Source: a virus
Strand: one strand, 5' to 3'
Length of the DNA: 64,000 nt
IMG/VR virus record: IMGVR_UViG_3300046675_000234
Span: 1 to 64,000 of that record
Shown here: positions 14,314 through 29,756 of the stretch, piece by piece
Numbering within the stretch: position 1 is the stretch's first letter
Layout: every line of letters begins with the position of its first letter
Made by a program: the position numbers and the translations under genes
The notes under the pieces: generated by a model
The model's database searches: none
What the model was told of the DNA's origin: nothing
Seen by the model: the letters and a program-made list of their open reading frames with translations, nothing else

Positions 14314-15224
14314 CAGACTCCGCTCAGGAGCACGATCGCCAGCGGCTGGTCCAGGCCGATGGCGGCTGCGCGCTGGGTGTCGGAGCGCCAGGTCTTGCGC
14401 GGCTCGTCGCGGTACAGCGGGCCAGCCATGAACGGCAGCTCGTCCGCGAAGAAGCCTGCGCGGTTGCGCTGCATGATGATCGCGTTGCCCGCCGGGACCT
14501 GGCGGGAGACCATCACGTCCAGGTTGAGGATCTGCTGCGGGAGCGTGCCCGTGTACAGCAGGTTCTCGCTGGCGATGTCACCGATGTAGGGCGCGGCGAA
14601 CGTGCTGGACTGGAGCAGCGTGTTCTTCGTGCCGTGGTTGATGATCAGCGTGTCGGCCTCGAACCCGAGCCACTGCGTCACGCCGGACGGGGACACGATG
14701 TTGGCGTTCTCGATGAGGAAGACCGCCTGCATGATGTCCGCCCGGATGGTGGCGGCGGCGCTCGACCAGGCGTTGGCTACCGCCAGCGTCTGGATCGAGG
14801 CGTTGGAGACTACCGCCGAGTAGAAGGCGGTGTTCCAGCTATAGACCATCGTGTTCTTGACCTGGAGAAGCTGCCGCGCCACCGGGTCAATCGCCTGGCG
14901 GCGGCGCATCTCGTCGCTGACCATGATGGCCATCGCCCGCTCATGGCTGAAGACCACGCGCGGGATGCCGACGCTGGTCGGCACGACCGGGACCTCACCG
15001 AACTCAGGCCGGATCTCGGGGTAGTCATCGGCGTAGAGCGGGGTGCTCTCCGCGTACCTGACCGCGCCCGATGGGGCCGCGCCGCCGCTGCGCAGCACCG
15101 AGTCCATCACGAACTCATTCCTGGTCATGTCCAGGATGAGCGACGGGATGACCAGCGGGTCCTTCAGCAGCTCGGAGACGGTTACCCGTGGGGAATCGGA
15201 GTAACTTCTGACAGCAGTCGGCAT
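14313..15224 (-). CDS. Major capsid protein (HK97 fold)
   Basis: Product is 303 residues. The N-arm (VRSYSDSPRVTVSELLKDP) and the pattern PEFGEVPVVPTSVGIPRVVFS match the E-loop and P-domain layout of HK97-type capsid subunits. So do QAIDPVARQLLQVKNTMVYSWN (spine helix region) and a C-terminal beta region with NAIIMQRNRAGFFADELPF. Length is within the family's normal range. It lies downstream of the protease-scaffold and decoration-type genes and upstream of connector genes, the standard order. It assembles the icosahedral shell. Confidence 0.85.
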   Translation of the reverse strand: MPTAVRSYSDSPRVTVSELLKDPLVIPSLILDMTRNEFVMDSVLRSGGAAPSGAVRYAESTPLYADDYPEIRPEFGEVPVVPTSVGIPRVVFSHERAMAIMVSDEMRRRQAIDPVARQLLQVKNTMVYSWNTAFYSAVVSNASIQTLAVANAWSSAAATIRADIMQAVFLIENANIVSPSGVTQWLGFEADTLIINHGTKNTLLQSSTFAAPYIGDIASENLLYTGTLPQQILNLDVMVSRQVPAGNAIIMQRNRAGFFADELPFMAGPLYRDEPRKTWRSDTQRAAAIGLDQPLAIVLLSGV

Positions 15225-15964: not shown

Positions 15965-16624
15965 CTACAGCCCCATCTGGCTCTTGGCGCGGTTGATGGT
16001 GTCGGTGCGCTCCGTCTGCTCGGCGGACGGCCCCGCGCCGGGCGGCTCGTCCATCGGGGAGCCCAGCTCGACGTCCAGGTTGAGCATCTGGGCCATCCTG
16101 GCGTACTCGGTCAGCACCTTGCGCATGACCTGGCCCGCGTCGGCCCGCTGCCCGTTGGCCAGGTCCACCGTGTGCCCGGAGCCCTGGAGCAGCGGCCGGG
16201 CCAGGTCGGTGATGTAGGGCGGTACGCCGAGATCCGCCAGCTTCCGCTTCTCAGCGTCGAATGCCGACACCTCGTACCGGGTCTGGAAGACGGCTAGCTG
16301 GCGCTCGGTCTCGTCGGCGCGGCTGTTGGCGAGGTCGATGGCCATCTGCGCCTCGACGGACAGGCCGGTAACGCCAGCCCCGGCCAGCGTCTCGGCGTCC
16401 ATCCCGGCCTCGATCTCGGCCAGCTCGTCGTCACCGAGCGCGTCGATGAGGTCGGCCAGCTCTTCGTCGGACAGCTCGTCGTCATCGGCGGGAGCGGTGC
16501 CGTTGCCGTTCGGGGCTGGCGGGGCTGACGGGGCCTGCGCTCCGAGCAGCCGGTCCAGGGCAGCGGGGTCCAGGTTGAGCAGGCGGTTCAGGTTGGCCTG
16601 CTGCTGGGCGTTCAGTTCGGGCAT
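15965..16624 (-). CDS. Possible nested scaffold protein from an internal start
   Basis: Inside the protease-scaffold gene, ATG 16624 (MPELNAQQQANLNRLL) is preceded by AGGAAGTGGAGACC, giving both AGGAAG and GGAG at useful spacing. A product of 219 residues would be the acidic scaffold part alone, in the same frame as the parent, as in the lambda C/Nu3 arrangement. The evidence is the local ribosome site and the domain boundary. No independent proof is available from sequence. Confidence 0.4.
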   Translation of the reverse strand: MPELNAQQQANLNRLLNLDPAALDRLLGAQAPSAPPAPNGNGTAPADDDELSDEELADLIDALGDDELAEIEAGMDAETLAGAGVTGLSVEAQMAIDLANSRADETERQLAVFQTRYEVSAFDAEKRKLADLGVPPYITDLARPLLQGSGHTVDLANGQRADAGQVMRKVLTEYARMAQMLNLDVELGSPMDEPPGAGPSAEQTERTDTINRAKSQMGL

Positions 16625-17167
16625 GGTCTCCACTTCCTGTCCGGCATAGCTGGAACCGGTGAGGTCGATGACAAGGGACGGCGTATTGGCCGCCTCGACG
16701 GTCTGCCAGGCCCCCAGGCCCGGAATGCGCGGGTCCAGGGTGCCGAGCACATGCTGGATCGCGGCGGGGTAGAACTTGCCGTCCGCCCGCTGGTACTGCT
16801 CCACGATCCGGGCCGACACGCCCAGGTACGGATTCTCGCGCAGGACTGCCTCACCGCGCTCGGTCGGGTCGAGCACCATCCACAGCCCGTCCGGCTCGGC
16901 CTCGAACCCCACGACCGTGCCCCGGTGCCGCTCCGGGTCATTGGTGTGGGTGTTGCCTGCGTCTGCGAGCTGGAAGCTCACCTGGTCGTACGCCTTGTCG
17001 TTGAAGGCGTTCGCCAGTCCCTGGAGGTAGTGCGGGGTGAAGTGCAGGGTGCGGCCCTGGTAACTGATGTCGCCTACCGGCAGCACCCGCTTGCGCCAGA
17101 GCTTGCTGGACATCTCGATCGCGTTGCCCCGGTCGAACGGGGTCAGCAGGGCTGCGAAGGCACCCAT
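15965..17167 (-). CDS. Fused capsid maturation protease and scaffold (Mu I-like)
   Basis: Product is 400 residues. The first ~170 residues resemble Mu I-like prohead proteases: PVGDISYQGRTLHFTPHYL, NTHTNDPERHRGTVVGFEAE and NPYLGVSARIVEQY, with the Ser of GVSARI as a candidate nucleophile. The rest (about 190-400) is acidic, Ala/Leu/Glu-rich and coiled-coil-like (LSDEELADLIDALGDDELAE), as expected of scaffold. In phages of this type the protease cleaves the scaffold from the procapsid after assembly. An internal ATG at 16624 with a ribosome site may also make a separate scaffold (see the nested entry). Confidence 0.75.
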   Translation of the reverse strand: MGAFAALLTPFDRGNAIEMSSKLWRKRVLPVGDISYQGRTLHFTPHYLQGLANAFNDKAYDQVSFQLADAGNTHTNDPERHRGTVVGFEAEPDGLWMVLDPTERGEAVLRENPYLGVSARIVEQYQRADGKFYPAAIQHVLGTLDPRIPGLGAWQTVEAANTPSLVIDLTGSSYAGQEVETMPELNAQQQANLNRLLNLDPAALDRLLGAQAPSAPPAPNGNGTAPADDDELSDEELADLIDALGDDELAEIEAGMDAETLAGAGVTGLSVEAQMAIDLANSRADETERQLAVFQTRYEVSAFDAEKRKLADLGVPPYITDLARPLLQGSGHTVDLANGQRADAGQVMRKVLTEYARMAQMLNLDVELGSPMDEPPGAGPSAEQTERTDTINRAKSQMGL

Positions 17168-17171
17168 CTGG

Positions 17172-17804
17172 CTACTTGCCCCCGAAGTTCTGTGCCCGCT
17201 TGGCGAACATGTGCGCCTTGTCGTGGGGCCAGCCCTTGCCCTTGAGCTTCTTGCGGATGCTCAGGCCCTTGGGGGTCAGCTCGCCGTCCTTGCTGTCGTC
17301 CTCATCCGGCTCGCTGTCCCCGCCGTTGGCCATGGTGACGCGCGGCCCGTCACCGGATGACCGGACTGGCGTGGCCAGCGCACTGATAGCGGGCACCCCG
17401 TACTGCGCCATCAGCGGCGTCTGCTCGGGCGGCGGCTGGAGTCCGGTACCGGGGTGACCGGGCGTGGTGGTGCCGCTGTTCCACAGCCCCAGCAGCTCGC
17501 CCAGCGCGCCGCGCTGGTGCGGGTGCGGCCGGGCCGAGAGCTTGCCGCCGTAGACCGACCGCCAGCCGTCCTCGTTCCTGATCTCACCGATCAGCGCGCC
17601 GCCACGACGGTGCCGGATCGACGCGCCGCCGGTCGCGCTGCGGCTCACCAGGATGTCAGCGGGGGAGGTCACCGGGTAACGCGAACTTGCCATCTCGACG
17701 CTCCTGCTGCCCCTCGTGCGGGCAGCAATGAACGCGGCCAGGTGCTCTGGATTCCCGGCTCCGCGCACAGCCAGCGCAGCGACAGCAGCTTGACGTGAGG
17801 CCAT
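17172..17804 (-). CDS. Capsid-region protein with GAxNPxxLAAFI and PHDKAHMFAKR motifs
   Basis: Product is 210 residues from ATG 17804 (GGAGG 4 nt upstream). A TTG seven codons earlier was rejected because the ribosome site lies inside it. The N-terminus has GAGNPEHLAAFIAARTRG, like GARNPGALAAYIGRKKYG in the 24449-25837 protein. A beta-like middle (PADILVSRSATGGASIRH) and a Pro-rich linker lead to an acidic stretch. The C-terminus KGWPHDKAHMFAKRAQNF matches a KAxxxA(R/K) motif found at the ends of two other capsid-region proteins. It lies just upstream of the protease gene. It is probably packaged in the head. Confidence 0.6.
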   Translation of the reverse strand: MASRQAAVAALAVRGAGNPEHLAAFIAARTRGSRSVEMASSRYPVTSPADILVSRSATGGASIRHRRGGALIGEIRNEDGWRSVYGGKLSARPHPHQRGALGELLGLWNSGTTTPGHPGTGLQPPPEQTPLMAQYGVPAISALATPVRSSGDGPRVTMANGGDSEPDEDDSKDGELTPKGLSIRKKLKGKGWPHDKAHMFAKRAQNFGGK

Positions 17805-17885
17805 GACGCCTCCAAGATTCAACGTCTACTTGAAGGCCATCGTAGGCTCACCTGGCCGAGAACGCATGACCCGGCACGGTAAAAC

Positions 17886-18011
17886 TCAGGATTGCTCGTG
17901 CTCGTTCACGCTCGCCGTGGCAAAATCCTCGGCTTCTTCCTCGTCAATTCCTGCCTGAACCAGGGCCTCGGTGAGGATGTCGATTACTTCCTGGCGTTCC
18001 TCCGGGCTCAT
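17886..18011 (-). CDS. Small acidic protein
   Basis: This 41-residue ORF runs from ATG 18011 to TGA 17886, beginning MSPEERQEVIDILTEALVQ and continuing as an acidic helix (GIDEEEAEDFATASVNEHE). It starts just after the stop of the upstream 18014-18895 gene. Its composition is unlike a random reading of this GC-rich DNA. No function was recognised. Confidence 0.5.
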   Translation of the reverse strand: MSPEERQEVIDILTEALVQAGIDEEEAEDFATASVNEHEQS

Positions 18012-18013
18012 GG

Positions 18014-18895
18014 TCAGACCTTCTTGATGAACTCGACTATGGGCTGGATGATGAACGGCAGCGCAGAGGTGAGCAGGGCGATCAGGTCCGGCACGCCCAG
18101 CCGGGACTCGACGTAGGCGGCGATGAATCCCGCCACGGCACCGCCAGCCTCGATGGCCAGCTTCTTTGCCCTCCGCTGGCCTTCCACGGTCTCGTGCGCC
18201 GCGTTCGCTGCGGCTATCTTGTCGGCCACGACCTGCTGGGCCTTGGTCAGCACCGCCTGCGCCTTGGCCGTAGCCAGCGGCTCAACCTGCGTCTTCAGGA
18301 GCTGCTCGTGGATAAGTTGCTCGCGCCTGGTCGGCTGCACCTTGCCGGATACCTGGAACGCGACCTCAGCCGCCTTGTTCTCGGGTGCGATGTCAGCCGG
18401 GATCTTCGCCGCGATGGCTGCCGGGATCTTCTGCGCTTCCTCGCTCGCCGCCTTCTGCGCTTCCTCGCGGGCGATCCTGCGCATCTGCGCTTCCTGCATC
18501 CGCTTGATCCTGGCCTGGCGGGACCGGGATGTCACCGGCTCCTGCGGCGGCCTGTACCCGGCCCGAGAGCCGGGACTGCCGCCGCCAATCCACTTGCCGC
18601 CCGGACCCCGCCGCTCGTGCATCCAGGCGTCACTGGCCAGCTCGACAAGCTGGCTGACGAGAGTGTCTCCCGCGAGCTGCTGAAGGATCGTGTCCTCGCC
18701 GTTCACAGGCCCAGTATCCAGCGTCCCCGCCAGCCTGTGAAGCATCGTGCCCGCATCCTGGATCTCGGTCAGCTCATCACCGGTCGCGGTGCTGGCCAGG
18801 CCGCGCACCTGCTGGATAGCGGTCTGCACCCGGCCCGCCGGGTCCTCCCAGGCCCACCGGGCAATGCTCAGTGCCTGCTGTCCGCGTGGCGTCAT
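18014..18895 (-). CDS. Capsid-region coiled-coil protein with RGPGGKW module
   Basis: Product is 293 residues. Residues 1-80 are helical (ARWAWEDPAGRVQTAIQQV). At about 87-102 is LASDAWMHERRGPGGKWIGG, which resembles the RDxxGRW modules of the neighbouring polyvalent protein. From about 125 to 245 the protein is a long charged, Ala/Lys/Glu-rich coiled coil (RIAREEAQKAASEEAQK). The last 45 residues are hydrophobic (GGAVAGFIAAYVES, LIALLTSALPFIIQPIV) and could insert in a membrane. The start overlaps the upstream stop by 4 nt. It is possibly an internal head protein ejected with DNA. Confidence 0.55.
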   Translation of the reverse strand: MTPRGQQALSIARWAWEDPAGRVQTAIQQVRGLASTATGDELTEIQDAGTMLHRLAGTLDTGPVNGEDTILQQLAGDTLVSQLVELASDAWMHERRGPGGKWIGGGSPGSRAGYRPPQEPVTSRSRQARIKRMQEAQMRRIAREEAQKAASEEAQKIPAAIAAKIPADIAPENKAAEVAFQVSGKVQPTRREQLIHEQLLKTQVEPLATAKAQAVLTKAQQVVADKIAAANAAHETVEGQRRAKKLAIEAGGAVAGFIAAYVESRLGVPDLIALLTSALPFIIQPIVEFIKKV

Positions 18896-21800
18896 GCTGC
18901 CCTCTCAGCCATCTCGCGCTGCTTGTCGGCCACCTTCTGTATTGCCACGGCCCTGGCCGCGCCGAACGCCTGCTTGGCCGCGCCCTCGGGATTGCCGGTG
19001 TTCCACTGGTGGAGGATGGCATCCGCGATCTTCATCGTCAGGTCATCCATGAACGTATTGTCAGCGCGCAGCTTCGGGTCCTTGGTCATGGCGTAGGCGA
19101 GCTGCTGGGACATGATCCCGAGCTTGCCAGCCGCCCCCTGGCGGTTGACCTCATCCGTCAGCTCGACTATCCGCGCATGACCGGCCTTGTTGCCGAGATC
19201 CTGGATGCCTTCCTCCCTGGCGATCTGCTGCACCCAGTCCTGGGCGTCCTTGGTCTGGGTCGGGTAGTGCTTCCAGCCGTTGCCGTTGGCAATTTCCTCC
19301 GGGTTGTCGATGGTCACGGCCATCTCGTGCACGGTATGCCCTGGGAATCGTGGCGTCGGCCGGTCCCCGATGCCTATCTGGTCGAAGAACTCGGCCGCGT
19401 GATGGGTCGCGCCCAGCTCGGTGAAGCCTTCCTCGATCTGGGAGATGGCGAAGACCTGGTACGCCTTCTTGTTGTCGGCAGCGGAGCCCTCCGGGACCGC
19501 GCCGTGGAACGTCTCATGCAGGATCACCTCGAACGCATCGGGCTGCTTCACGTCACCGGGCAAAGACATGTCGTCCTGGAGCGCCTGGGCCACGTTGGAG
19601 GCGACACTCATCGTGCCGTCCCACTCCATCTCGGCCAGGACTTCCTTCTGCTCGCTGTACAGGAATAGCTTGACCTTGCCGTTCCACTCTTCGTGACTGC
19701 CGCCGATCGCCTTGGGCACGAACTCGGCCGCCGGGGTAGCCACCCTGGCGACCGCAGCCTTCAGCGCAGGCTCATTCGCCATCGGAGCGCCGACAAACGG
19801 GTCAGCCGCCGCGCGGATCAGCTTGTGGAGGTTCAGTTGCTCGCGCTGGCCCCTGGTCCACCGGCCCCGGCGGTCGCGCAGCTCGTCCGGGTTGAAGTGG
19901 GGAGCGAACTGGAAGATCTGCCCGCTGATAGTAGGCGGCTCGTCCTCCCCCTCGTCATCCTCGGGCTCGGGAGCCTGGACCGCCTCAGCCTGGGAGCGCC
20001 ACTGGCCGGGACCAGCGAAGTGGACGGTATCCGGTGTCGCCATCGCCGCTCCTTCCGCTACGTGAGGTGGCCAGTAACCGTCGCCTGTCCTGAAATGGTA
20101 TGCGCCCCCGATGGCTCTGGTGTACGCACCGATCGCCTCGACTTCCTCGGGGGTGTCCACTACGGCTACCGGGTCGATGTCAATCCGGTTCAGGTCATCG
20201 TCGTGGAAGATCCCCAGGTAGAAGCCCCGGCGCTCCAGGGCGGGCCGGAACTCGTCCTTAGCCTGGTCCATGGCCCGGCTGAAGTCGGGGTAGCTGGCGT
20301 GCTCAGGGATGCTGATCGAGTGCATGCCCCTGGGCTTGACCGACAGGGCGTACTTGTCCGCGCCCTGCGGCAGCGCTGAGCCGGTATGACCGTCGATCGT
20401 GCCGCCGCCCCACGGCTTGCGCACCTCGGCGTACATGTCGCCCTTGATCTCGGGCCAGTACTCGTCCATGCCGTGGATCGGGGAGCTGTCCCGCTTCATT
20501 TTGTCGATCATCTGGTTGCCCTTGGCGGCAATGTGCTGGTACTCGTCAAAGCTGACCGGGCGGCTGTTGCCGCGCGCCTCGGCGGCGGTGATCACCGGCC
20601 GGACCCGCTGAGACTTCCTCGGGCCTGGCATCAGCGACTCGGCGGCCTTGCCAGCCCCGGTGCCGGGCACCTTGACCCAGCGGCCCTTATCATCGCGGGG
20701 CTCGGCCGGGTCGAACCGGAAATCGAGCACCTGGGCGATCAGCAGCTCGTTGGCCCACGACTCGGACATCGGGCCGGTGGTGCCGGGGATCAGCTCGTAC
20801 TTGTGCCGCGCGGCCTCGGCCTGCCAGCGCGTCCAGGAGTTGCGCAGCATGGTGTTCCGGCCCTTGGACAGCCGCCGACCGCCCCGGCTGGCGGTCACAG
20901 TCTCGGCCTGGCCGATGTGCGCCTCGTCCTCGGCCTCGTTGATCCGCTGCTGCCGCAGCCAGGTGATCGCCTGGAGCTGGTGAGGCGAGACCGGCGTGCC
21001 CCGCTTGCTGATCTCCAGGGCGGCATCGCGGTAGGTGTCGGCCACGTACTGGTAGTAGCGGTCGTGGCCGATCGGGGCCTTGTCGGCTTCCTTCTTCGGG
21101 ATGCGCTTGCCCATGGCCACGGTCATCGCGTGCCGGTCGATCACGACCTGGCCGGACGTGTCGCCGGGCTCATCCCCGCCGTACCGGATCAGCCGGGCGA
21201 ACGCCTTGGTCTTGGAGCTGGAGTTGGCAACGTCGGCAGCCTCGCCGTCGATGGCTTCCTGGGCGTTGCGCTGCATGGACTGGGTGATCATGCCCTCGCC
21301 AGGCCCGAGCGCGCGGCCGAGATCCAGCGACCGGTCGGCATTGAGCATGTTGACGGCCCAGCCGGTCTGCGGCGACAGCGCGGCGATCACGCCCGCGTTC
21401 TTCTCGATGTCGCCGTGGTCCATCTTCTTGGCCAGGTTGTGCGCGTCGGCGTACCAGCGCATCCCCTGCGCCCGCTCCTGGGCGTCGGAGTCGTCGTAGG
21501 CGGCCACGATGTGCGCCGCGCTGACCGGGTTGGCCTGGAAGAACGGGTGATCACCGGGCATCTTGTACGTGGCCCGGCTGCTGCGCAGCCGCTCGGGGTC
21601 CGGCTTGACGTAGCCAGCCCCGGTCTTCGTCCACCGGCCGCGCACGTCGCGCTTCTCGAACGGGTCGAACTTCCAGCCCAGCTCCATCGGGATGGCGCTC
21701 TCCACCAGCGTGGAGTTGCCGAGCGGCCGGGCCTCGATGCCCATCTGCTGGGCGAACTGGTTGGCGTACGGGATGGCCAGGTGCACCGGCAGGTTGATCC

Positions 21801-22638
21801 GCTGCACCTCGATCTCGCGTGGCCCGTTGCCGCTGAAGGCCAGCGCCTCATCAGACGCCCAGCGGTGGTGCCCGTCGATCACGTAGTTATCGCGCGTCAC
21901 CCATATGGGCTCCTTCAGCATGTGCCGGACCTTGGCGTTGCCGCTCTCGGCGGCCTTGGTGATCCCGGCAACGGTGGCGGCGGTGAGCTGGGTCTGGGTG
22001 GCGCGCAGGTTACCGGCCGGTACGCGCTCGTTGCGGACGTCGATGCCGTCGCGCCTGAGCTGGGCACGGAACTCGGCGTCCAGCTCGATGAACTTGTTGG
22101 CCCCGCCCGCCAGCAGGGCGGCCTCGGTACCAGGCAGGGCCGGGCCGTTGAGCTGCGGCATGGCGGTGCGCGGGATGCCCCTGGTCTGCTCGTTGAACAG
22201 CCGGGTGCCCCGCACGCTGATGTTGCCCAGGTCCCAGCCCGGCTCATGACCCCGGCTGTAGCCCTGCGCGGTGGCCTGCCGGTCCACCTCATCGAGCAGC
22301 GGCTTGATCTCGGCCGGGCTGTTCAGCCGGACATGCTTGCCGCTCGCCATCAGCGCCACGGCCCGGCCCATGTCGCCCGCCACGTCGATCGGGTCGGCTG
22401 CCGTGCCGTCGCCCTGCGCCCGTCCGGGCTGCTCCAGCGGCTTGCGCCCGTCCGCTGGCTCCATCGACGGCACCAGCGGGTCGTAACCCATGAACTTGCC
22501 CTGGTAGCCGTGCCGTTCCTGGCCGGGCTCGCTGGGCACCGTCGCGCCGTGCGTCCACCGGCCGCGCGTGTCGCGTTCCTCGTGCAGCCAGCCGGTATGC
22601 GCGAGGTCCGTGGTGAACCACTCCAGCAGCTCGGTCAT
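18892..22638 (-). CDS. Polyvalent capsid-associated protein: ParB-like, glycosylase-like, unknown and HExxH peptidase domains
   Basis: Product is 1248 residues with four modules, each opened by an RDxxGRW motif at about 22-28, 330-336, 648-654 and 921-927. Module 1 has a ParB-like core (VIDGHHRWASDEALAF, about 250-265). Module 2 has AGVIAALSPQTGW, QVVIDRHAMTVAMGK and PHQLQAITWLRQQ, a pattern seen in phage domains related to HhH-GPD glycosylase folds. Module 3 ends in FHDDDLNRIDIDPVAVVD with no clear function. Module 4 holds HETFH (about 1041-1045) and a downstream Glu (EEGFTELGATHH, about 1067), giving a zinc peptidase. Multidomain polyvalent proteins of this kind are known to be delivered with phage DNA and to act on host defences or DNA. 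Delivery here is inferred from location between portal and capsid genes. Confidence 0.75.
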   Translation of the reverse strand: MTELLEWFTTDLAHTGWLHEERDTRGRWTHGATVPSEPGQERHGYQGKFMGYDPLVPSMEPADGRKPLEQPGRAQGDGTAADPIDVAGDMGRAVALMASGKHVRLNSPAEIKPLLDEVDRQATAQGYSRGHEPGWDLGNISVRGTRLFNEQTRGIPRTAMPQLNGPALPGTEAALLAGGANKFIELDAEFRAQLRRDGIDVRNERVPAGNLRATQTQLTAATVAGITKAAESGNAKVRHMLKEPIWVTRDNYVIDGHHRWASDEALAFSGNGPREIEVQRINLPVHLAIPYANQFAQQMGIEARPLGNSTLVESAIPMELGWKFDPFEKRDVRGRWTKTGAGYVKPDPERLRSSRATYKMPGDHPFFQANPVSAAHIVAAYDDSDAQERAQGMRWYADAHNLAKKMDHGDIEKNAGVIAALSPQTGWAVNMLNADRSLDLGRALGPGEGMITQSMQRNAQEAIDGEAADVANSSSKTKAFARLIRYGGDEPGDTSGQVVIDRHAMTVAMGKRIPKKEADKAPIGHDRYYQYVADTYRDAALEISKRGTPVSPHQLQAITWLRQQRINEAEDEAHIGQAETVTASRGGRRLSKGRNTMLRNSWTRWQAEAARHKYELIPGTTGPMSESWANELLIAQVLDFRFDPAEPRDDKGRWVKVPGTGAGKAAESLMPGPRKSQRVRPVITAAEARGNSRPVSFDEYQHIAAKGNQMIDKMKRDSSPIHGMDEYWPEIKGDMYAEVRKPWGGGTIDGHTGSALPQGADKYALSVKPRGMHSISIPEHASYPDFSRAMDQAKDEFRPALERRGFYLGIFHDDDLNRIDIDPVAVVDTPEEVEAIGAYTRAIGGAYHFRTGDGYWPPHVAEGAAMATPDTVHFAGPGQWRSQAEAVQAPEPEDDEGEDEPPTISGQIFQFAPHFNPDELRDRRGRWTRGQREQLNLHKLIRAAADPFVGAPMANEPALKAAVARVATPAAEFVPKAIGGSHEEWNGKVKLFLYSEQKEVLAEMEWDGTMSVASNVAQALQDDMSLPGDVKQPDAFEVILHETFHGAVPEGSAADNKKAYQVFAISQIEEGFTELGATHHAAEFFDQIGIGDRPTPRFPGHTVHEMAVTIDNPEEIANGNGWKHYPTQTKDAQDWVQQIAREEGIQDLGNKAGHARIVELTDEVNRQGAAGKLGIMSQQLAYAMTKDPKLRADNTFMDDLTMKIADAILHQWNTGNPEGAAKQAFGAARAVAIQKVADKQREMAERAA

Positions 22639-24473
22639 CAGGCCGCCTTGGCGCGGGCCTGCTTCTCCAGCTCGCCCGCCTCGGCCTTGCCAGCCGCCGC
22701 CCGGACCTCGGGATGGACGTGCCCGCCACCGCGCGACCAGCGCCGGATCGCGGCCCGCGCGATGGCGTACGCCTTGCCGGGCGGCATGCCGCGCTTCTCG
22801 ATCAGCGCCTTGACGATCTGCTGCTCGTACGGGGTGTGGCCCATGCCCTTGACGTGGTAGAGCCCCGGCCCGCCGGGCTTGCCGCGCGGTGCTGGCGTGA
22901 CGCTCAGCCTGCCGGTGTTGGCGCTCAGCTCGGTGGCCATCTGGACCTGCTTGCTGCGGGCCTGGGCCAGCACCGCCTGCGCCTTGTTGTGCTGCGGCCC
23001 GCCCTTGCGCAGCTTGCCGTACAGCTTCTGCTTGCGCGTGTCCCCGCCGAACACCTGCGTGAAGCCCTCAGCCTCGCGCTTGGACAGGTGCCTGCCGAAA
23101 GGGCCGGTGATACCCGGCACGCCGGTCATCGCCCGGTTGCGCTCAGCCTGCTTGCTGACGTGGACCCCCTTGCCGCTGCCCTTGGGAGCGAACAGGTTCT
23201 GGAGGCCCTTCGCCTCACGGTGGGAGACGTGGCTGCCGACCATGGCCCTGGCAGCCGATCCGGGCTGGAACTCCCCGTGGCTGAGCTTGCCCTTCTCACC
23301 GGGCATGCCACCGCCCATGACCCCGGCCGCGTCCCGCAAGGAGCGCCTGATCTTGTCGGCCTCCAGCTTGATCCAGCCGTGCCGGTAGCGGAAGGCCAGC
23401 TCAATGGCGTTGTCTATGTTCTCCCAGGAGTACCCGATGGTGGTGGTCAGCTCGCCGGGGTGCCTGACCGTGGACGGGTAGTAGCCGGGGCCGTGCTTGA
23501 TGCCGGGCTGGCCGGTGCCGATGGAGCGCGGTGCCCGCCAGCTCTCGTCCTGGGCGTAGGTGCCCCTCGGCACACCGGACAGGCTGCGGCGGATGCCGAC
23601 GACAACGGCATGGCTGCCGGTGCCGCGTGTCGCGCGCTCCGCGACCGACAGGTGCACCCGGACGCTCTTCATGTCCCGCTCGCCCAGCGCCCGGCCTGCG
23701 TTGTGCAGCGCGTTCGCTGCGATATCGCTGGTTGACCGGACAGATTCCGCTGCTGCCATGATGGCCCGGATGTGGCCGAAGTCACCGGGCTTGCCGGTGT
23801 AGTCGAGTTTCTCCGACCGGGCGTGGTGGCCCGGAGCACCGCGCCGTGCCTGCTCCGAGACGCCCAGCGCCCGGACCAGCCCGGCCCGCTGCGCCATCCG
23901 CATGCTGGCCGTGTTCCGCATCATGCCGGGGATGCCCTGCCACCGGCCCCAGCGGTCGCGCGGCTGTGCCGGGTTGAACGCCAGCTCGACCGCCCCGCCG
24001 TCCTCGTTGGCGAGCTGCCGGATCTGGGTGGTGAGCGCGGCGATCATCTGGGTGATGATGGCCGCCGCCTCCTTGACGGTAAGAACATGCCCCTTGGCCG
24101 GGGCCTTGCCAGCCGGTGCCCCGGCCTTGGCCTGCTTAGCCGACGTCGCCGCCGCGCCCTTCTTGGCAGGGGTCGAGCTGGCCGACTTGCGGTGCACCAC
24201 GGCCTTGCCGGTGGCTGCCGCCGTGGCTGCCCGCTGGGCCTGCCGGGCGGTGAGCTGGTTATGCTCCAGCTCGGCCAGGATCTTGCGCAGCGCCTTGATC
24301 CTGGCCGCCAGCGCGGCCTTCTTCTGCTGGCTCGCGGTCGGCGGCGGCTTGCCCTTGGCCGCTGGCTGGCTACCGGGCGGGGCGAACTGGCCGCCGGTAG
24401 CGGCACCGGCTCCTACGCGGGGCTGGGCCGGGTTGAACAGCTCGATGGCTAGCTCAACTGAGCCCCAGCCGGG
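22638..24473 (-). CDS. Capsid-region multidomain protein, -1 frameshift extension of the 24449-25837 gene
   Basis: The frame is open from 24473 to 22638 (611 residues), but its first ATG/GTG/TTG is a GTG at 24200. The 91 codons before that look coding. They contain ELAIELFNPAQPRVGAG and ATGGQFAPPG, a module also seen at about residues 160-180 as ELAFNPAQPRDRWGRW. A canonical slippery heptamer (CCCTTTC, 24473-24479) lies in the overlap with the upstream gene, so expression as a 1066-residue fusion ending here is predicted. Later segments include AIELAFRYRHGWIKLE, a central basic region (HVSHREAKGLQNLF repeated as HLSKREAEGFTQVF) and a C-terminal GKAYAIARAAIRRW. It is probably an internal virion protein. 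Independent translation from 24200 is the alternative. Confidence 0.65.
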   Translation of the reverse strand, partial: PGWGSVELAIELFNPAQPRVGAGAATGGQFAPPGSQPAAKGKPPPTASQQKKAALAARIKALRKILAELEHNQLTARQAQRAATAAATGKAVVHRKSASSTPAKKGAAATSAKQAKAGAPAGKAPAKGHVLTVKEAAAIITQMIAALTTQIRQLANEDGGAVELAFNPAQPRDRWGRWQGIPGMMRNTASMRMAQRAGLVRALGVSEQARRGAPGHHARSEKLDYTGKPGDFGHIRAIMAAAESVRSTSDIAANALHNAGRALGERDMKSVRVHLSVAERATRGTGSHAVVVGIRRSLSGVPRGTYAQDESWRAPRSIGTGQPGIKHGPGYYPSTVRHPGELTTTIGYSWENIDNAIELAFRYRHGWIKLEADKIRRSLRDAAGVMGGGMPGEKGKLSHGEFQPGSAARAMVGSHVSHREAKGLQNLFAPKGSGKGVHVSKQAERNRAMTGVPGITGPFGRHLSKREAEGFTQVFGGDTRKQKLYGKLRKGGPQHNKAQAVLAQARSKQVQMATELSANTGRLSVTPAPRGKPGGPGLYHVKGMGHTPYEQQIVKALIEKRGMPPGKAYAIARAAIRRWSRGGGHVHPEVRAAAGKAEAGELEKQARAKAA

Positions 24474-24479
24474 AAAGGG
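24447..24479 (-). promoter_or_regulatory. Programmed -1 frameshift signal: slippery CCCTTTC plus hairpin
   Basis: On the minus strand the zero-frame codons CCT TTC are preceded by C, giving X XXY YYZ with X=C, Y=T, Z=C (24479-24473). Two nucleotides later an imperfect hairpin follows: GGCT, GGG, GCTC, AGTT loop, GAGC, T, AGCC (24470-24447), with the inner stem 9 nt from the heptamer. The zero-frame TAG (24451-24449) lies in the 3' part of the hairpin. After a slip both tRNAs re-pair as CCC and TTT. Confidence 0.75.
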
Positions 24480-25837
24480 GGCGGCCCCATGGGGTTGGAG
24501 TAGCCCATCGGCGGGACCGCCGACCCGGCCTGGAACGAGCGGCCGATGCTGCGCGCGATGGCCAGCGCCTTGTTGTGGCTGTGCCCCTTGGCCCGCGCTG
24601 CCCGGTAGATGCGCTGCTGCCGGGCGGCTTCCTTCGCTATGGCCTTCGCCTTGTTGCGGCCCATCCCGGCGGCGTACTTGCCCGCGTCGGCGCGCTCATC
24701 GGCCAGCATCTTCGCCCGGCTGGTGGCCGGGGGCCTGCCCTTCGGGCCGACCGTCTTGGGCTGCGTGCCGTTCTCGAACCTGGCAGCAGCACGCTCGATC
24801 CGCTGGACCAGGCCCGGCCCCTTCTTCTGCCGTGTCTCCAGCGGGAAGCCAGCGCCGCTGGCAGCAACCTCGGCCGCCGACCCGGCGTGCCACGTCCCGC
24901 CGAGCTTGCCCCTGTTCGGCATGCCCGGAAAGTCGCCTATGACCGCGCCGTAGTCTGCGGCACCCCTCCCCGGCCTCACCTTCGCTGCTGCTCTCCTGGA
25001 CGCGAGAGTCCCCTTGAATGCAGCGGTACTGCGATTGGCTCGTTCCACGGCTGCCGTCGCGGCCCGCTGACGCGGAGACACGCTGCCGCCGCCGTCGAGC
25101 CTGATCCAGCCGTGCCTGAAGCGGAACGCCAGCTCCAGGGCATCGAGCTGACTGGCGTGCTTGCTGCCGAGCTTGGCGAACCCCTTGCGCCCGTACTTCT
25201 TGCGCCCGATGTACGCGGCCAGCGCGCCGGGGTTGCGGGCACCGCGCTTGGCCAGCACGCCCTGGAGCTTGGCGAAGTTCTTGCCCGATCCCGGCTTGGC
25301 CCCGGCGAAGGTGGCCAGCTCGATCGCGTGCAGGTGCGTGTCCCAGCTCGCGGCGACGGCAACTGGCGGTGCTGCTCTCATGGCTCTCTCCTGATCCCGG
25401 ACGTCGCGGCGGTGCTGGCCGATGGCGCGGTTGGACCCGTGCACGTCCTCGATGTCCTTGATCAGCAGCAGGTGCCGGTGCGCTTGCTGCATCATCGCCT
25501 TGCCGCGCATGTGCCCGGCATCGTCGTGCACCCCGTGCCGCCGCAGTTGCAGCGGCTGGAGACCGAAGATCGCGGCGTTGACGTGTCGCTGGGCGCTGTG
25601 CGTCCGGCCCGAGTCCAGCTCGCGCGCCGCGTCCTGGAGGTGCTGGTGCACGTCCATCTCGGGGTAGGAGGTGGCCATGTTGGTGGCCAGCTTGCGCAGC
25701 CCGCTGCTGGCGCGGGCCTTCATCTCCCCGGTGGCGATCTTCCGGCTGAAGACGTGCTCGGGCTCAGGTCCCGGCGGCGTGGTCACAGGCGGGGCGTCAA
25801 CGCCGATCGGCCGCTGGTTGTCTGCTGCTGCTGCCAT
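24449..25837 (-). CDS. Capsid-region internal protein with GARNPGALAAYI and RHGWI motifs (short form)
   Basis: Product is 462 residues from ATG 25837, 4 nt after the MuF-like gene stop. The longer start at 25897 was rejected because it overlaps that gene with Arg-rich sequence. Residues 1-150 are helical and His/Gln-rich. Then come IELATFAGAKPGSGKNFAKL, RGARNPGALAAYIGRKKYG and ALELAFRFRHGWIRLDGG. The C-terminal third is basic and helical with GHSHNKALAIARSIGRSF. The protein then ends in a Met/Pro-rich tail (PMGPPPFPAGAQLS), encoded over the slippery site. Basic, Ala-rich composition and position between portal and protease genes suggest an internal, DNA-contacting head protein. Confidence 0.65.
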   Translation of the reverse strand: MAAAADNQRPIGVDAPPVTTPPGPEPEHVFSRKIATGEMKARASSGLRKLATNMATSYPEMDVHQHLQDAARELDSGRTHSAQRHVNAAIFGLQPLQLRRHGVHDDAGHMRGKAMMQQAHRHLLLIKDIEDVHGSNRAIGQHRRDVRDQERAMRAAPPVAVAASWDTHLHAIELATFAGAKPGSGKNFAKLQGVLAKRGARNPGALAAYIGRKKYGRKGFAKLGSKHASQLDALELAFRFRHGWIRLDGGGSVSPRQRAATAAVERANRSTAAFKGTLASRRAAAKVRPGRGAADYGAVIGDFPGMPNRGKLGGTWHAGSAAEVAASGAGFPLETRQKKGPGLVQRIERAAARFENGTQPKTVGPKGRPPATSRAKMLADERADAGKYAAGMGRNKAKAIAKEAARQQRIYRAARAKGHSHNKALAIARSIGRSFQAGSAVPPMGYSNPMGPPPFPAGAQLS

Positions 25838-25841
25838 GGTC

Positions 25842-26519
25842 TCACGCTGCCTTCGCGTATGCCCTCTCGGGCCTGGCGCTCGGAAGCATTCTCGCACCGA
25901 TGCGCGGCGGTCCCGCGTAGCACCGGCAGTGCGGGTGCACCGAGCCGGGGTAGCCGATCAGCGGCGGCGAGCTGGCGTAGAAGTTCGCCCCGTTCGCGGC
26001 GCGGCAGTCAGCACTGGTCCGGGAGTCGAGCACCGTCCGCCAGCCGAGCAGGTCGCCGTAGTTCCACGCGGCCATGTCCACGTTCATCGCGGCCTGCGCC
26101 CGCTGCCAGATCGCGTCCCGGTGCTGGCCGAAGTAACGGCGCTCGCGGGCCATCCCAGCCGCGAGCGCCTGACGGATGCCCTCCCCGCGTGACCGCGCCT
26201 CAACCACGTCGCTGGTCAGGCGCTTGCTCGCGTTCAGCGCGAACTGGGCGCGGCGGATCAGGTTGGTGCGGCTGGCGTTCAGCGTGGCCGAGCCCACTGC
26301 GCCAGTCTGCTCGGGCGGCATCTCCATCACCACCATGAGCGCGATCAGCATGGCCCGGCGGTCGATCTTCCTCGGCCTCAGCAGCGCGGCGACCGCGCTG
26401 AGCGCGGCGGCTGCGGTGACCGCGCTCACCAGGGCGGTGGCGATCACCGCCACCGCAGCGGCGTCCTGTCCGGCATCAGAGGGAGGCGGCTGCGGCGGCG
26501 GCTGCTGCGGGGTGCTCAC
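25842..26519 (-). CDS. MuF-like minor capsid (portal-associated) protein
   Basis: Product is 225 residues. A Pro/Gln-rich start and an Ala-rich hydrophobic region (about 22-48) precede helices with RRAMLIALMVVMEMP. The C-terminal signature is the SPP1 gp7 / Mu gpF type: WRTVLDSRTSADCRAANG followed by GSVHPHCRCYAG, with conserved Cys and His residues. Such proteins sit at the portal inside the head and are often ejected with DNA. The gene directly follows the portal gene (overlap 4 nt). It is shorter than classic Mu gpF because the N-terminal half is reduced. Confidence 0.8.
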   Translation of the reverse strand: MSTPQQPPPQPPPSDAGQDAAAVAVIATALVSAVTAAAALSAVAALLRPRKIDRRAMLIALMVVMEMPPEQTGAVGSATLNASRTNLIRRAQFALNASKRLTSDVVEARSRGEGIRQALAAGMARERRYFGQHRDAIWQRAQAAMNVDMAAWNYGDLLGWRTVLDSRTSADCRAANGANFYASSPPLIGYPGSVHPHCRCYAGPPRIGARMLPSARPERAYAKAA

Positions 26520-28093
26520 GCCAGCCGTCCCGGCGGCGGGGTGGACGGCGGTTTAGCAGGCGGTGTCCGCTGCTGCGCCGCTGCCAGCGGCTGGCCGGGC
26601 GGCGGTCGCATGGAGGCACCTTGCGGCCTCATGGCCGCACGGTTCGCAATGGCGGTCGCGCCCGTCGCCAGCCCCTGGAGACCGCCGAGCGCACCGGCTG
26701 CCTCGGGCGGCATGCCGGGCGGCGGCTGGGCCTGGAGCGCCTCGGCGCGCTGGGACATGGTGGACACCAGCGCCTGGTGCACCTGGTCCACGTCGAGCTG
26801 GAGGATCGAGGCCATCCGCTCGGTGATCAGGTCCACCACCTGGATCGGGATGTGCAGCGCGGGAGCCGCCGCGATCTGGCCGAACAGGGTCAGCAGCGCC
26901 TGCTCCTGCTCGTCCTGGAGCGGGCCGAACTTGGCCTGCGGGAACGCGGCGTCCGGCCCGAAGTTGAGCACCGTCAGCGGCATGATGATCTGGTGGGAGT
27001 ACGCCTGGGCGATCTCGGCGGCCACGCCCTGCCGGGACTTGAGGTAGAAGCTGGACTGGTCCTGGCTCAGCGCGTAAGAGCCCTTGCCGCCTGTTGCGCT
27101 GGAGGTCAGCGCCATGAACCCGGCCAGAACCGAGTGCACCTGCCAGCCCTCCAGGAAGCTCAGCGCGTCATTGAAGAACTTGCCCGAGTCGGCGTTGTTC
27201 TCCATCACCTCGAACGCCTTCTGGCCCTGCTGCGGCTGCTCCATCCCGACCACGCCGCTGCTCTTCAGCGCAGCGATCGAGTCGGCGCGGTCGTTGGCGG
27301 TGGGCTGGTCCGGCCCGTAGACGACCACGCGGGGCAGCGCCTGGGTCTCCAGGAAGTGGTACCAGAGGTAGAGCAGCTTCATCTTGGTCTGATAGCACCA
27401 GTAGCTGACCTCCATCTCCGATGCCCCGGTCAGCGGCTCGCGGTGCTTGCCGTGGGTGTAGATAAACGACCGGACGTGCGGGATGTCCACGTAGCCGGGG
27501 ACCTTCTGCCGTGCGGCCTGCGCCATGAGCTGCCCGCCGAACAGCCAGACCTGCTGGCGGAAGCCGTGCGGTGCGGCGGTCCTGGCGTTGTAGCGGGCCT
27601 GGCAGGTGGCGCTCGGGCGGAAGCCGATCTTGTCGTAGATGATCTTGCCGTCGCTCTCGCGGATCTTCCAGACCTTCTCGAAGAACGCCCGCCGGTAGAT
27701 CTGGCCGGACGTGATCTGGCCGATCAGGTCCACGTTGGGCGTGCTCATCCCGCCCGCGTGGTCCGGGGTCATCAGCACGGACTTGGCCAGCTCCAGCTCG
27801 CCCTTGTCGCCCTTGGCCCCCGCGATGTCAAAGTCAGCCTCGCGGATCGGCAGGGTCAGCGCGGCCTCTACCGCAGAGCACAGCCCGTCCCGGCTGAACA
27901 TCGTCTTCATGTCACGGCTTGACCACTCACCGTAGTCAAAGACATCGCCCTCGCCGTAGTAGGCGAACAGCCGCTGCCCCCAGTCGAACGAGGTGCCGAT
28001 CTCAGGACCGAGCAGCTCGCGCCGGTTGGTCTTCAGGTCGGGCAGCTTCAGCACCTGGGCCAGGGTGCCGTTCGCGTTCTGGCTGGGAGGCAT
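26516..28093 (-). CDS. Portal protein
   Basis: Product is 525 residues. It forms the dodecameric ring at one capsid vertex through which DNA is packaged and ejected. Segments such as FSRDGLCSAVEAALTLPI, YRRAFFEKVWKIRE, GKHREPLTGASEMEVSYWCY and SYALSQDQSSFYLKSRQGV match portal families of the Mu gp29/DUF935 type. The C-terminal ~70 residues are Pro/Gln-rich and probably flexible. It lies between terminase large subunit and MuF-like genes, the standard order. The start ATG at 28093 lies inside the end of the terminase gene (92-nt overlap) and has no obvious ribosome site, which is unusual. Confidence 0.88.
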   Translation of the reverse strand: MPPSQNANGTLAQVLKLPDLKTNRRELLGPEIGTSFDWGQRLFAYYGEGDVFDYGEWSSRDMKTMFSRDGLCSAVEAALTLPIREADFDIAGAKGDKGELELAKSVLMTPDHAGGMSTPNVDLIGQITSGQIYRRAFFEKVWKIRESDGKIIYDKIGFRPSATCQARYNARTAAPHGFRQQVWLFGGQLMAQAARQKVPGYVDIPHVRSFIYTHGKHREPLTGASEMEVSYWCYQTKMKLLYLWYHFLETQALPRVVVYGPDQPTANDRADSIAALKSSGVVGMEQPQQGQKAFEVMENNADSGKFFNDALSFLEGWQVHSVLAGFMALTSSATGGKGSYALSQDQSSFYLKSRQGVAAEIAQAYSHQIIMPLTVLNFGPDAAFPQAKFGPLQDEQEQALLTLFGQIAAAPALHIPIQVVDLITERMASILQLDVDQVHQALVSTMSQRAEALQAQPPPGMPPEAAGALGGLQGLATGATAIANRAAMRPQGASMRPPPGQPLAAAQQRTPPAKPPSTPPPGRLA

Positions 28094-29756
28094 CTAACCG
28101 CCAATCGCGCCGGTTGGGGCTCTGGCCGTTCGGCTTCTCGTCCTCGTGCGGGGCGAAGCTGTCCAGGCCCCAGTCTCGCTCTTGATCGTAGGCCCCGTTA
28201 TGCGCCTCGGCCAGCTTGCGCTGGGCTCGGGTGGCCTGCGGGTCGGTCAGGACGCCTGCCAGCGGCCCGGTGACGTCGGTGCCGGTGTCCAGGTCATCGG
28301 AGCGCAGCCACTCCCGCTTGCCGCCGGGGACCGGCGGGCCGAACCAGGTGTCCAGGAACGGGTAGCAGGCCCACACCAGCGAGTCCAGCCGGTCGGGGGA
28401 GCGCTCGCCAGCCGCCCCGGTGAAGCTGCACATCTGGTCTTCCAGGTCCACGAAGCGCTCGGTGTCGGTGTGCCAGACCTTCTCCCCGCTCTGCGGGTCG
28501 GTGATCTGGTAGGTGACCTGCTTCTGGCAGTGCCGGACGATCTTGCGCTCGTACAGCGCGCTGACCGGCTCGGCGCGGGTGCGCTTGGCGTGGCTGGCGT
28601 GCACCTCGCGGTAGCGGACCCGGCCGACGTCCTTCATGACCTGCTCGAACGTGGCCTTCAGCCACTCCCCGCCGTGGTTCTGCTCGACCACCAGCGTGGC
28701 GTCCAGCTCCTGGGCCTTCTTGATCACCCGCTTGGCGAACATGACCGGGCTCTCCTGCCCGCCCCAGCTCTCGATCACGTACAGGTGCGGGTCATCGACC
28801 ATGCCGCGTCCCACCACGGTGTACGCCTGCTCGTCGCTGTCTTCCTTGCCATCGGAAGGGTCCACGCCGATGAAGACCTGGGTCAGCCAGGGCGGCCCGC
28901 CTTCCTCGTCCACGCCGGGGCTCAGGCAGGACTCGATCAGCTCGCGGGTCCACAGCGCGTTGGCGACGTCATCGAGCAGCTCGCCTTCCAGCTCCTGGCG
29001 CTCCAGCCGGGTGCCCTTGGCGCTGCCGACCACCGTCCGGTAGAACGCCTCGGACAGGTTGGCGATGTTGTCGATGGTGCGCAGCCGCCGGGTGATCACG
29101 CCGCCGTGCTCGGGCTCGTTGCGGATCAGCGAGCGGATCAGCTTGCGGGCTGACATGCTGACCTTGGGCGTGCCTGTGGCGATGATCTTGGAGACACCCT
29201 GGCGCACCGCGTACTTGAGTGACTCGCCCCAGGCCACCTCCCACTTCTTCCACAGCCCGATCTCGTCGCACCAGGCGGCCCGCAGGTTGCGGCCCTGGAT
29301 GCGCAGCCCGCCCTCGTCGGCGCTGTCCACGTAGATGATCAGCCCGGAGTGCAGCACCACCTGCCCGTAGGTGCGCCAGGCCGACCGGACGATGTTGGAG
29401 CGGTGATCCTTGACCTCGGCCATCGAGGTGCCCAGCGCCCGCAGGATGCCGCTCTCGCCCTCCACGCACTTGGTCCAGGCGTCGGCGTAGGTGGGCGCGA
29501 TGATGCCGTACTCGCCCTCGGTGTCGGTGTCGTCCAGGATGATGTCCGCCAGCCCCTGAGCGCCCGCACGGGTCTTGCCGCTGCCGCGCCCGCCCTGGAG
29601 GTAGAACACGCGCCACGGGTCGGGCAGCGGCGGCAGGATCTGCTCGGGCCGGGCCACGCCAGCCCGCCACCGCACGCGCGGGTCCTTGACCGGCTGGCTG
29701 AGCCGGGTGTCCGCCCACTCGGCCAGCAGGCTGGTGTCGGCCTCAGCGACGGTCAT
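28002..29756 (-). CDS. terL: Terminase large subunit
   Basis: Product is 584 residues with the two-domain packaging motor layout. The N-terminal ATPase has Walker A GGRGSGKT (residues 55-62), and Walker B with the catalytic acid in AAWCDEIGLW, followed by the coupling motif ATGTPK. The C-terminal nuclease domain has the RNase H-like acids in FIGVDPSDG, a central VVEQNHGGEW and RLDSLVWACYPF. It powers DNA packaging and makes the terminal cuts. The last ~30 residues are Arg/Pro-rich and run over the portal start, so this tail may be a neutral read-through extension. The gene follows the small subunit after an 87-nt gap. Confidence 0.93.
   Translation of the reverse strand: MTVAEADTSLLAEWADTRLSQPVKDPRVRWRAGVARPEQILPPLPDPWRVFYLQGGRGSGKTRAGAQGLADIILDDTDTEGEYGIIAPTYADAWTKCVEGESGILRALGTSMAEVKDHRSNIVRSAWRTYGQVVLHSGLIIYVDSADEGGLRIQGRNLRAAWCDEIGLWKKWEVAWGESLKYAVRQGVSKIIATGTPKVSMSARKLIRSLIRNEPEHGGVITRRLRTIDNIANLSEAFYRTVVGSAKGTRLERQELEGELLDDVANALWTRELIESCLSPGVDEEGGPPWLTQVFIGVDPSDGKEDSDEQAYTVVGRGMVDDPHLYVIESWGGQESPVMFAKRVIKKAQELDATLVVEQNHGGEWLKATFEQVMKDVGRVRYREVHASHAKRTRAEPVSALYERKIVRHCQKQVTYQITDPQSGEKVWHTDTERFVDLEDQMCSFTGAAGERSPDRLDSLVWACYPFLDTWFGPPVPGGKREWLRSDDLDTGTDVTGPLAGVLTDPQATRAQRKLAEAHNGAYDQERDWGLDSFAPHEDEKPNGQSPNRRDWRLDASQPERERHPGPGAEAARPEDQPARAARS

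What the first reader, a model, noticed from the sequence alone, without database searches (positions are those of the whole stretch)
17172..25837. Recurring RDxxGRW / GGQF / RHGW tag across capsid-region proteins
Related short segments, often preceded by LAxxF(N/D)P, appear about ten times in neighbouring proteins. The 1248-residue protein has four. The frameshift product has FNPAQPRVGAG...GGQF and FNPAQPRDRWGRW. The 18014-18895 protein has HERRGPGGKW. The two frameshift halves also share ELAFRFRHGWIRL and ELAFRYRHGWIKL. The pattern behaves like a linear tag that could recruit proteins into the procapsid or be a maturation-protease site. Similar ends (GxGGQF) are known at N-termini of phage virion proteins, without agreed function.
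Basis: partly seen in the sequence, partly recalled or inferred. Interest (0 to 1): 0.8.

Follow-up and report, generated by a model that had tools for sequence, protein, structure and literature searches.

The report
Phage head cargo address tag
A short repeated protein 'address label' sits in front of the enzymes that tailed viruses of bacteria and archaea probably pack into their heads and inject into the cell, so it may let us read off a virus's injected weapons from sequence alone; its function is inferred, not yet shown by experiment.

Summary
The repeat is real, far beyond chance, and not confined to this phage. Nine copies of three short forms lie in four neighbouring proteins at 18.6-25.1 kb: T1 F[DN]PxxPRDxxGRW, T2 PRxxxGxxxGGQF, T3 (GPKGYx)HGWI. 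Each form is widespread in IMG/VR (at least 119, at least 119 and 78 DNA stretches; reversed T1 pattern 0). Carriers lie between terminase/portal and capsid genes: 16 of 17 records with a detected terminase have all tags downstream on the same strand; 8 of 8 with a detected capsid gene have them 3-11 kb upstream. Eight groups of annotated phages, including an archaeal virus, fit. The tag precedes unrelated cargo (137 segments, 86 BLAST clusters): ADP-ribosyltransferases, Zeta toxin, topoisomerase IB, and also prohead protease, MuF and portal. In the 1248-aa 'polyvalent' protein, tag plus domain behave as cassettes that relatives reorder with breaks at the tags. Best reading: an interchangeable procapsid-targeting (cargo-loading) signal, working like the T4 capsid targeting sequence but often internal and repeated. 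Recruitment is inferred; a processing site is not excluded; the receptor is unknown. No description was found in the open-access library searched.

The parts
25097..25135 (-). T3-form tag ELAFRFRHGWIRL in the 482-aa protein
   Evidence: full form GPKGYxHGW found in 78 viral stretches
24384..24437 (-). T2-form tag FNPAQPRVGAGAATGGQF at the start of the -1-frame ORF
   Evidence: T2 form in at least 119 viral stretches
23922..23987 (-). T1 tag AVELAFNPAQPRDRWGRW
   Evidence: profile hit 43.7 bits, E 1.8e-12
23364..23402 (-). T3-form tag ELAFRYRHGWIKL
22543..22575 (-). T1 half-tag GWLHEERDTRGRW before the ParB-like module (module 1) of the 1248-aa protein
   Evidence: (E 0.006); conserved in relatives as GWLHEERDITGRW / GWLHEERDIRGRW
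21613..21678 (-). T1 tag KFDPFEKRDVRGRW before module 2 (DUF7178)
   Evidence: E 2.7e-12; PF23802 E 5.8e-35 at residues 374-561
20659..20724 (-). T1 tag RFDPAEPRDDKGRW before module 3 (unknown domain)
   Evidence: E 1.2e-11
19843..19902 (-). T1 tag HFNPDELRDRRGRW before module 4 (HETFH, zincin-like by motif)
   Evidence: E 3.2e-10; HETFH read from the sequence
18587..18616 (-). degenerate tag HERRGPGGKW in the 293-aa protein
   Evidence: relatives have ERRGKGGKW at the same place
18892..22638 (-). 1248-aa polyvalent protein of four tagged, mutually non-homologous modules
22641..24695 (-). -1-frame open frame downstream of the 482-aa ORF, carrying T2, T1 and T3 tags
24449..25897 (-). 482-aa tagged protein (upstream half of the putative frameshift product)
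18014..18895 (-). 293-aa protein with the degenerate tag
25842..26519 (-). MuF-like minor head protein
   Evidence: PF04233 E 5.1e-7
26516..28093 (-). Mu-type portal protein
   Evidence: PF06074 E 4e-28
28002..29756 (-). terminase large subunit
   Evidence: PF03237 E 2.1e-13
15965..17167 (-). 400-aa protein, by position a scaffold/protease candidate; no family hit and a poor structure model
14313..15224 (-). major capsid protein
   Evidence: phrog_1650 E 7.4e-72

Best explanation
The repeats are copies of a portable short linear address tag that directs proteins into the assembling phage head. Each tag is a disordered 13-25-residue peptide, usually followed by a Gly-rich linker and then a folded cargo domain. 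It occurs in at least three interchangeable forms: T1 [FYW][DN][PE]xx[QH]PRDxxGR[WF], T2 W[DN]ExxHPRxPAGxxxGGQF, T3 VGPKGYxHGWI. During head assembly the tag docks on a procapsid component (shell interior, core/scaffold, portal or MuF; not identified), so that tagged proteins, namely the head protease, MuF and portal extensions, and effectors such as ADP-ribosyltransferases, are enclosed and the effectors are later injected with the DNA. In polyvalent proteins every domain carries its own tag, so tag plus domain is an exchangeable cassette. SHOWN computationally: the repeats, their spread, their position between terminase/portal and capsid genes, their attachment to unrelated cargo, reordering of tagged modules with breaks at the tags, and conservation at protein rather than DNA level. 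INFERRED: packaging, docking, injection and the receptor.
For: Conserved residues outside the search pattern (Q/E at +4, T/S at +13). Position: 16/17 records have all tags downstream of TerL on the same strand, 8/8 upstream of MCP; upstream neighbours terminase/portal, downstream major head/head protease, same picture for T3 and T2. Annotated phages found by tag BLAST: Konstantine and Nocardia P3.1 head proteases with an N-terminal tag, Gilgamesh gp48, Sixama gp73, Boopy gp78, GodonK gp67, archaeal HHTV-1 gp13, a Helicobacter HI1409-family protein, a Rhizobium phage gene after the portal. Cargo: 137 segments in 86 clusters, ART, Zeta toxin, CdiA RNase, InPase, TopoIB, MuF, head protease; T2/T3 cargo the same classes. 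Cassettes. Tag region pLDDT below 50 in a tag+ART-like model. Synonymous identity 0.61 against 0.54 expected.
Against: No virion proteomics, binding or packaging data for any tagged protein were found. No receptor identified; tags co-occur with several portal and capsid families, which a single receptor must explain. One record (G004) has its tags upstream of the detected terminase (circular permutation possible). Tag-BLAST hits in annotated phages have weak E-values (0.1 to 9); their shared position, not the score, is the evidence. One tag per protein would suffice for packaging, so nine tags in one 2912-aa protein need a further reason.
Confidence: 0.62

Rival explanations
1. The tag is mainly a processing site: the prohead protease or the zincin domain of the same polypeptide cuts at or near it, releasing single effector domains from polyvalent precursors. 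In a T4-like system the same peptide may both target and be cut.
For: Tags lie between domains; a zincin-like domain is C-terminal in both the 1248-aa protein (HETFH) and the 2912-aa protein (HEFGH, plus an internal HELAH); Iyer et al. propose zincin processing of polyvalent proteins (PMC5512222); the T4 CTS is cut by gp21 (PMC9026906).
Against: [LI]xE and AxE are not enriched in the 12 residues before T1 (0.098 against 0.088; 0.080 against 0.074; T2 and T3 do show a leader [VIL][ED][LK]). The tag also stands at residues 2-16 of a solitary head protease and before single-domain proteins.
Confidence: 0.17
2. The tag is an inert interdomain linker and recombination seam: a sequence that lets effector modules be swapped, conserved because it is copied with the modules.
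For: Homology blocks between the 1248-aa protein and its relatives begin and end at the tags.
Against: Synonymous sites are barely more conserved than expected; solitary N-terminal tags exist on proteases and single effectors; the tag is confined to the head module; cargo clusters number 86 of 137, far too diverged for recent copying.
Confidence: 0.1
3. The tag acts after delivery or during ejection: a threading or unfolding signal for the portal channel, or a host-side targeting signal for injected effectors.
For: Most recognised cargo is of the kind predicted to be injected; the tag is disordered.
Against: It is also on head maturation proteases, MuF and portal-linked proteins, which work in the procapsid; the hosts range from actinobacteria and alphaproteobacteria to a haloarchaeon, so a host receptor is unlikely.
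Confidence: 0.08

Closest known systems
T4 capsid targeting sequence (CTS) of IPI, IPII, IPIII and Alt
   Same: Short peptide shared by unrelated internal head proteins, including an ADP-ribosyltransferase; loads cargo into the prohead (PMC9026906).
   Different: T4 CTS is N-terminal, about 10 residues, phage-family specific and removed by gp21 at an xE site. This tag is often internal and repeated, has a different sequence in three forms, spans many phage types and shows no xE signature before T1.
Polyvalent proteins of phages (Iyer et al. 2017, PMC5512222)
   Same: The 1248-aa and 2912-aa proteins fit the description: disparate effector domains in one polypeptide next to virion genes, with zincin-like domains.
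   Different: The sections and passages of that paper read here, and of three related ones, mention no shared tag between domains.
Encapsulin cargo targeting peptides (PMC10960027)
   Same: Short linear motif that loads diverse enzymes into a shell of HK97 fold.
   Different: Usually C-terminal, cellular compartments; binding site on the shell known there, receptor unknown here.
MuF toxins / SPP1 gp7
   Same: Effectors brought to the head by fusion to a MuF domain; gp7 reaches the procapsid through the portal (title of a reference in PMC5576092).
   Different: Uses a folded MuF domain as carrier; here a short peptide is the shared element, on MuF-less proteins too.

Membership tests
T4-type capsid targeting sequence | Shared short peptide on otherwise unrelated internal head proteins | tested here: inconclusive
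   Shared by unrelated proteins (137 cargo segments in 86 BLAST clusters) encoded in the head module; that they are internal head proteins is inferred, not shown
T4-type capsid targeting sequence | N-terminal position | tested here: not met
   N-terminal in some (residues 2-16 in Konstantine gp15), internal and repeated in many
T4-type capsid targeting sequence | Cleavage by a prohead protease at an xE site next to the targeting residues | tested here: not met
   no enrichment of [LI]xE or AxE before T1; partial leader in T2/T3. Cleavage itself not testable here
T4-type capsid targeting sequence | Necessary and sufficient for packaging | not testable with these tools
   needs mutants and fusions
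Phage polyvalent proteins | Several disparate catalytic or effector domains in one polypeptide | tested here: met
   four mutually non-homologous modules, DUF7178, ParB-like and HETFH; identities of modules 1, 3 and 4 rest on motifs
Phage polyvalent proteins | Encoded among virion structural genes of portal-terminase phages | tested here: met
   terminase, portal, MuF upstream; capsid downstream
Encapsulin targeting peptide | Binds the interior of an HK97-fold shell | not testable with these tools
   no complex modelling available
Encapsulin targeting peptide | Usually C-terminal on the cargo | tested here: not met
   the tag precedes its cargo; nearly all complete carriers have 60 or more residues after it

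The most novel reading that the evidence does not exclude
A general, cassette-forming cargo-loading code, in at least three interchangeable peptide forms, is used across tailed viruses of bacteria and at least one archaeal virus to load proteases and diverse injected effectors into procapsids, so that virion-packaged effectors can be predicted from sequence alone.
Probability: 0.55. Interest if true: 0.9.

Novelty: new variant of a known kind. Interest (0 to 1): 0.8.

Why it matters
How most phages choose which proteins go into the head and then into the host is known for few models such as T4. A recognisable tag shared by proteases, MuF proteins and predicted injected effectors would make this testable in many phages, give a sequence-only way to find new injected effectors among the many phage protein families without known function, and offer a portable peptide for loading proteins into phage heads.

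Tried and rejected
Chance: rejected by shuffling, by the empty reversed-pattern scan and by near-empty reversed BLAST controls. DNA-level repeat: rejected, synonymous sites near expectation. AT-hook-like DNA binding: considered and dropped because position 8 is often acidic. All carriers being one protein family: rejected, 86 clusters. Chloroflexi hits (FDPPPPRDYRGRWGG) are one unrelated cellular family and were left out of the tag profile and the cargo set. First GGQF scan found nothing because my pattern was one base short; repeated correctly. Structure of the 400-aa protein: too poor to interpret (mean pLDDT 52). Fold search of the tag+ART-like module: only weak hits, best the Rhs toxin TreX complex, E 0.31. 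Gilgamesh gp48 and Sixama gp73 tags score below the T1 profile threshold and are seen only by BLAST and pattern. A two-module alignment for structure prediction came out shifted and was not used. Literature searches for the motif itself gave nothing.

Full report
WHAT IS THERE. The window is bases 1-64000 of an 81,691-base IMG/VR virus record. Its late genes run on the minus strand: terminase (28002-29756), Mu-type portal (26516-28093), MuF (25842-26519), a 482-aa ORF, a second ORF in the -1 frame, a 1248-aa protein, a 293-aa protein, a 216-aa ORF, a 400-aa protein, and the major capsid protein (14313-15224). Nine tag copies lie in four of the proteins between MuF and capsid. RDxxGRW occurs five times against 0.0005 in shuffled proteins. 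A 24-position profile of the tag finds no other copy in the whole record.

THREE FORMS. T1 is F[DN]PxxPRDxxGRW. T2 (...PRxxxGxxxGGQF) shares the [FWY][DN][PE]xx[QEH]PR start. A relative (L184) carries T1, T2 and both versions of T3 in one 1069-aa protein.

SPREAD AND CONTROLS. Reversed pattern: none. T2: at least 119; T3: 78. In 257 Gb of bacterial genomes the T1 pattern occurs 45 times; nine belong to one unrelated Chloroflexi family, and the neighbours of the rest include terminase, portal and capsid genes in part, so some are prophages. Positions that the search did not fix are conserved too: Q/E at +4 and T/S at +13.

POSITION. In 48 virus records searched, terminase was recognised in 17; in 16 of these all tags are downstream on the same strand (median nearest 4.8 kb; two of the 16, G000 and G030, are close relatives). 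The exception is G004. The capsid model recognised eight records; all tags lie 2.9-10.9 kb upstream of the capsid gene on the same strand. These models miss most records, so the neighbour test is independent support: nearby upstream neighbours of T1 carriers match mainly terminase and portal families (with some major head and head-protease families), nearby downstream ones mainly major head, head-protease and portal families, and no tail or replication family is among the 25 most frequent. T3 and T2 neighbours look the same. Gene calling there used a GC3 filter, and no matched set of random viral genes was scanned.

ANNOTATED PHAGES. Tag queries against 50,697 phage records give few and individually weak hits, but they all lie at or just after the portal, or between terminase and capsid: head proteases of Konstantine (MSFNPRQPRDRFGRW) and Nocardia phage P3.1 (MARRKFNPRQPRDLRGRW); a 4624-aa protein of Streptomyces phage Gilgamesh after its portal-MuF gene (WNPALHPRDSKGRF); proteins right after the portal in Gordonia phages Sixama, Boopy and GodonK; HHTV-1 gp13 of a haloarchaeal virus between terminase and MuF; a Helicobacter prophage HI1409-family protein; and, in a Rhizobium phage, an in-frame upstream extension of the gene after the portal. 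Reversed queries gave two hits and none.

CARGO. Segments after T1 fall into 86 BLAST clusters of 137. Recognised ones: DUF7178, ADP-ribosyltransferases, Zeta toxin, CdiA-type RNase, GNAT, inorganic pyrophosphatase, topoisomerase IB, ParB, peptidoglycan-active domains, MuF, head maturation protease, portal, Alt-like ART. T2/T3 cargo: ADP-ribosyltransferases, peptidoglycan-binding domains, Zeta toxin, topoisomerase IB, prohead protease S78. Most segments have no family hit.

CASSETTES. The four modules of the 1248-aa protein are mutually non-homologous. Relatives carry the same modules in another order (window ParB-DUF7178-x-zincin; L184 DUF7178-ParB-y-zincin; L179 z-ParB-zincin) and the homology blocks start and stop at the tags. 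Record G004 has a 2912-aa ORF with nine tags every 304-351 residues: seven homologous ART-like modules (about 38-50% identical; DRAT weak, E 0.0065) and two zincin-like modules. Record G027 has five consecutive separate genes, each with its own tag. The same tag thus serves separate genes and fused polyproteins.

MECHANISM. The common denominator of prohead protease, MuF, portal-linked proteins and predicted injected effectors is the inside of the procapsid. I therefore read the tag as a procapsid-targeting signal. It is predicted disordered (pLDDT below 50 over residues 1-41 of a tag+ART-like model, shallow alignment) and is kept at protein level. Nine tags in one chain suggest that modules are separated before or during assembly, by the zincin or the head protease, or that multiple docking is favoured; this is open. 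T4 CTS shows that targeting and cleavage can share one peptide, but the xE cut signature is not enriched before T1.

NOVELTY. T4 CTS and encapsulin peptides make the kind known; the sequence, internal repetition, cassette use and breadth appear new. The passages I read or searched in four papers on polyvalent proteins, MuF toxins, polymorphic toxins and NAD systems do not mention it; subscription papers and preprints were not available, so prior description cannot be excluded.

Noticed in passing
window 24473-24479, minus strand: Canonical -1 slippery heptamer C_CCT_TTC where the 482-aa ORF overlaps the -1 frame ORF; kept in diverged relatives despite an indel just downstream, and relatives L184/L185 encode one 1069-aa protein there: a programmed frameshift is likely.
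   Followed up: partly
L168:2659-11394 (record G004, minus strand): 2912-aa polyprotein of seven ART-like and two zincin-like modules, each preceded by a tag; next to a tagged GNAT gene.
   Followed up: partly
window 24449-25897 and 17172-17822, minus strand: A second repeated short segment: LAKRGARNPGALAAYIGRKKYG in the 482-aa protein and ALAVRGAGNPEHLAAFIAARTRG in the 216-aa ORF.
   Followed up: no
window 24449-24600 and 22641-22830, minus strand: Similar C-terminal helices KGHSHNKALAIARSI (482-aa protein) and KRGMPPGKAYAIARAAI (frameshift product).
   Followed up: no
L184:529-3735: Relative's 1069-aa protein carries T1, T2 and three HGWI tags in one chain, in another order than the window.
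   Followed up: partly
L126, L137, L140, L144, L145, L151, L158, L161, L165: Chloroflexi chromosomal protein family with FDPPPPRDYRGRWGG, an unrelated look-alike that a naive motif search would pick up.
   Followed up: partly
L194:5001-5060 (Rhizobium phage RHph_N28_2): In-frame tag FDPSKHPRGANGRF upstream of the annotated start of EVB88_010: the gene start is probably annotated too late.
   Followed up: partly
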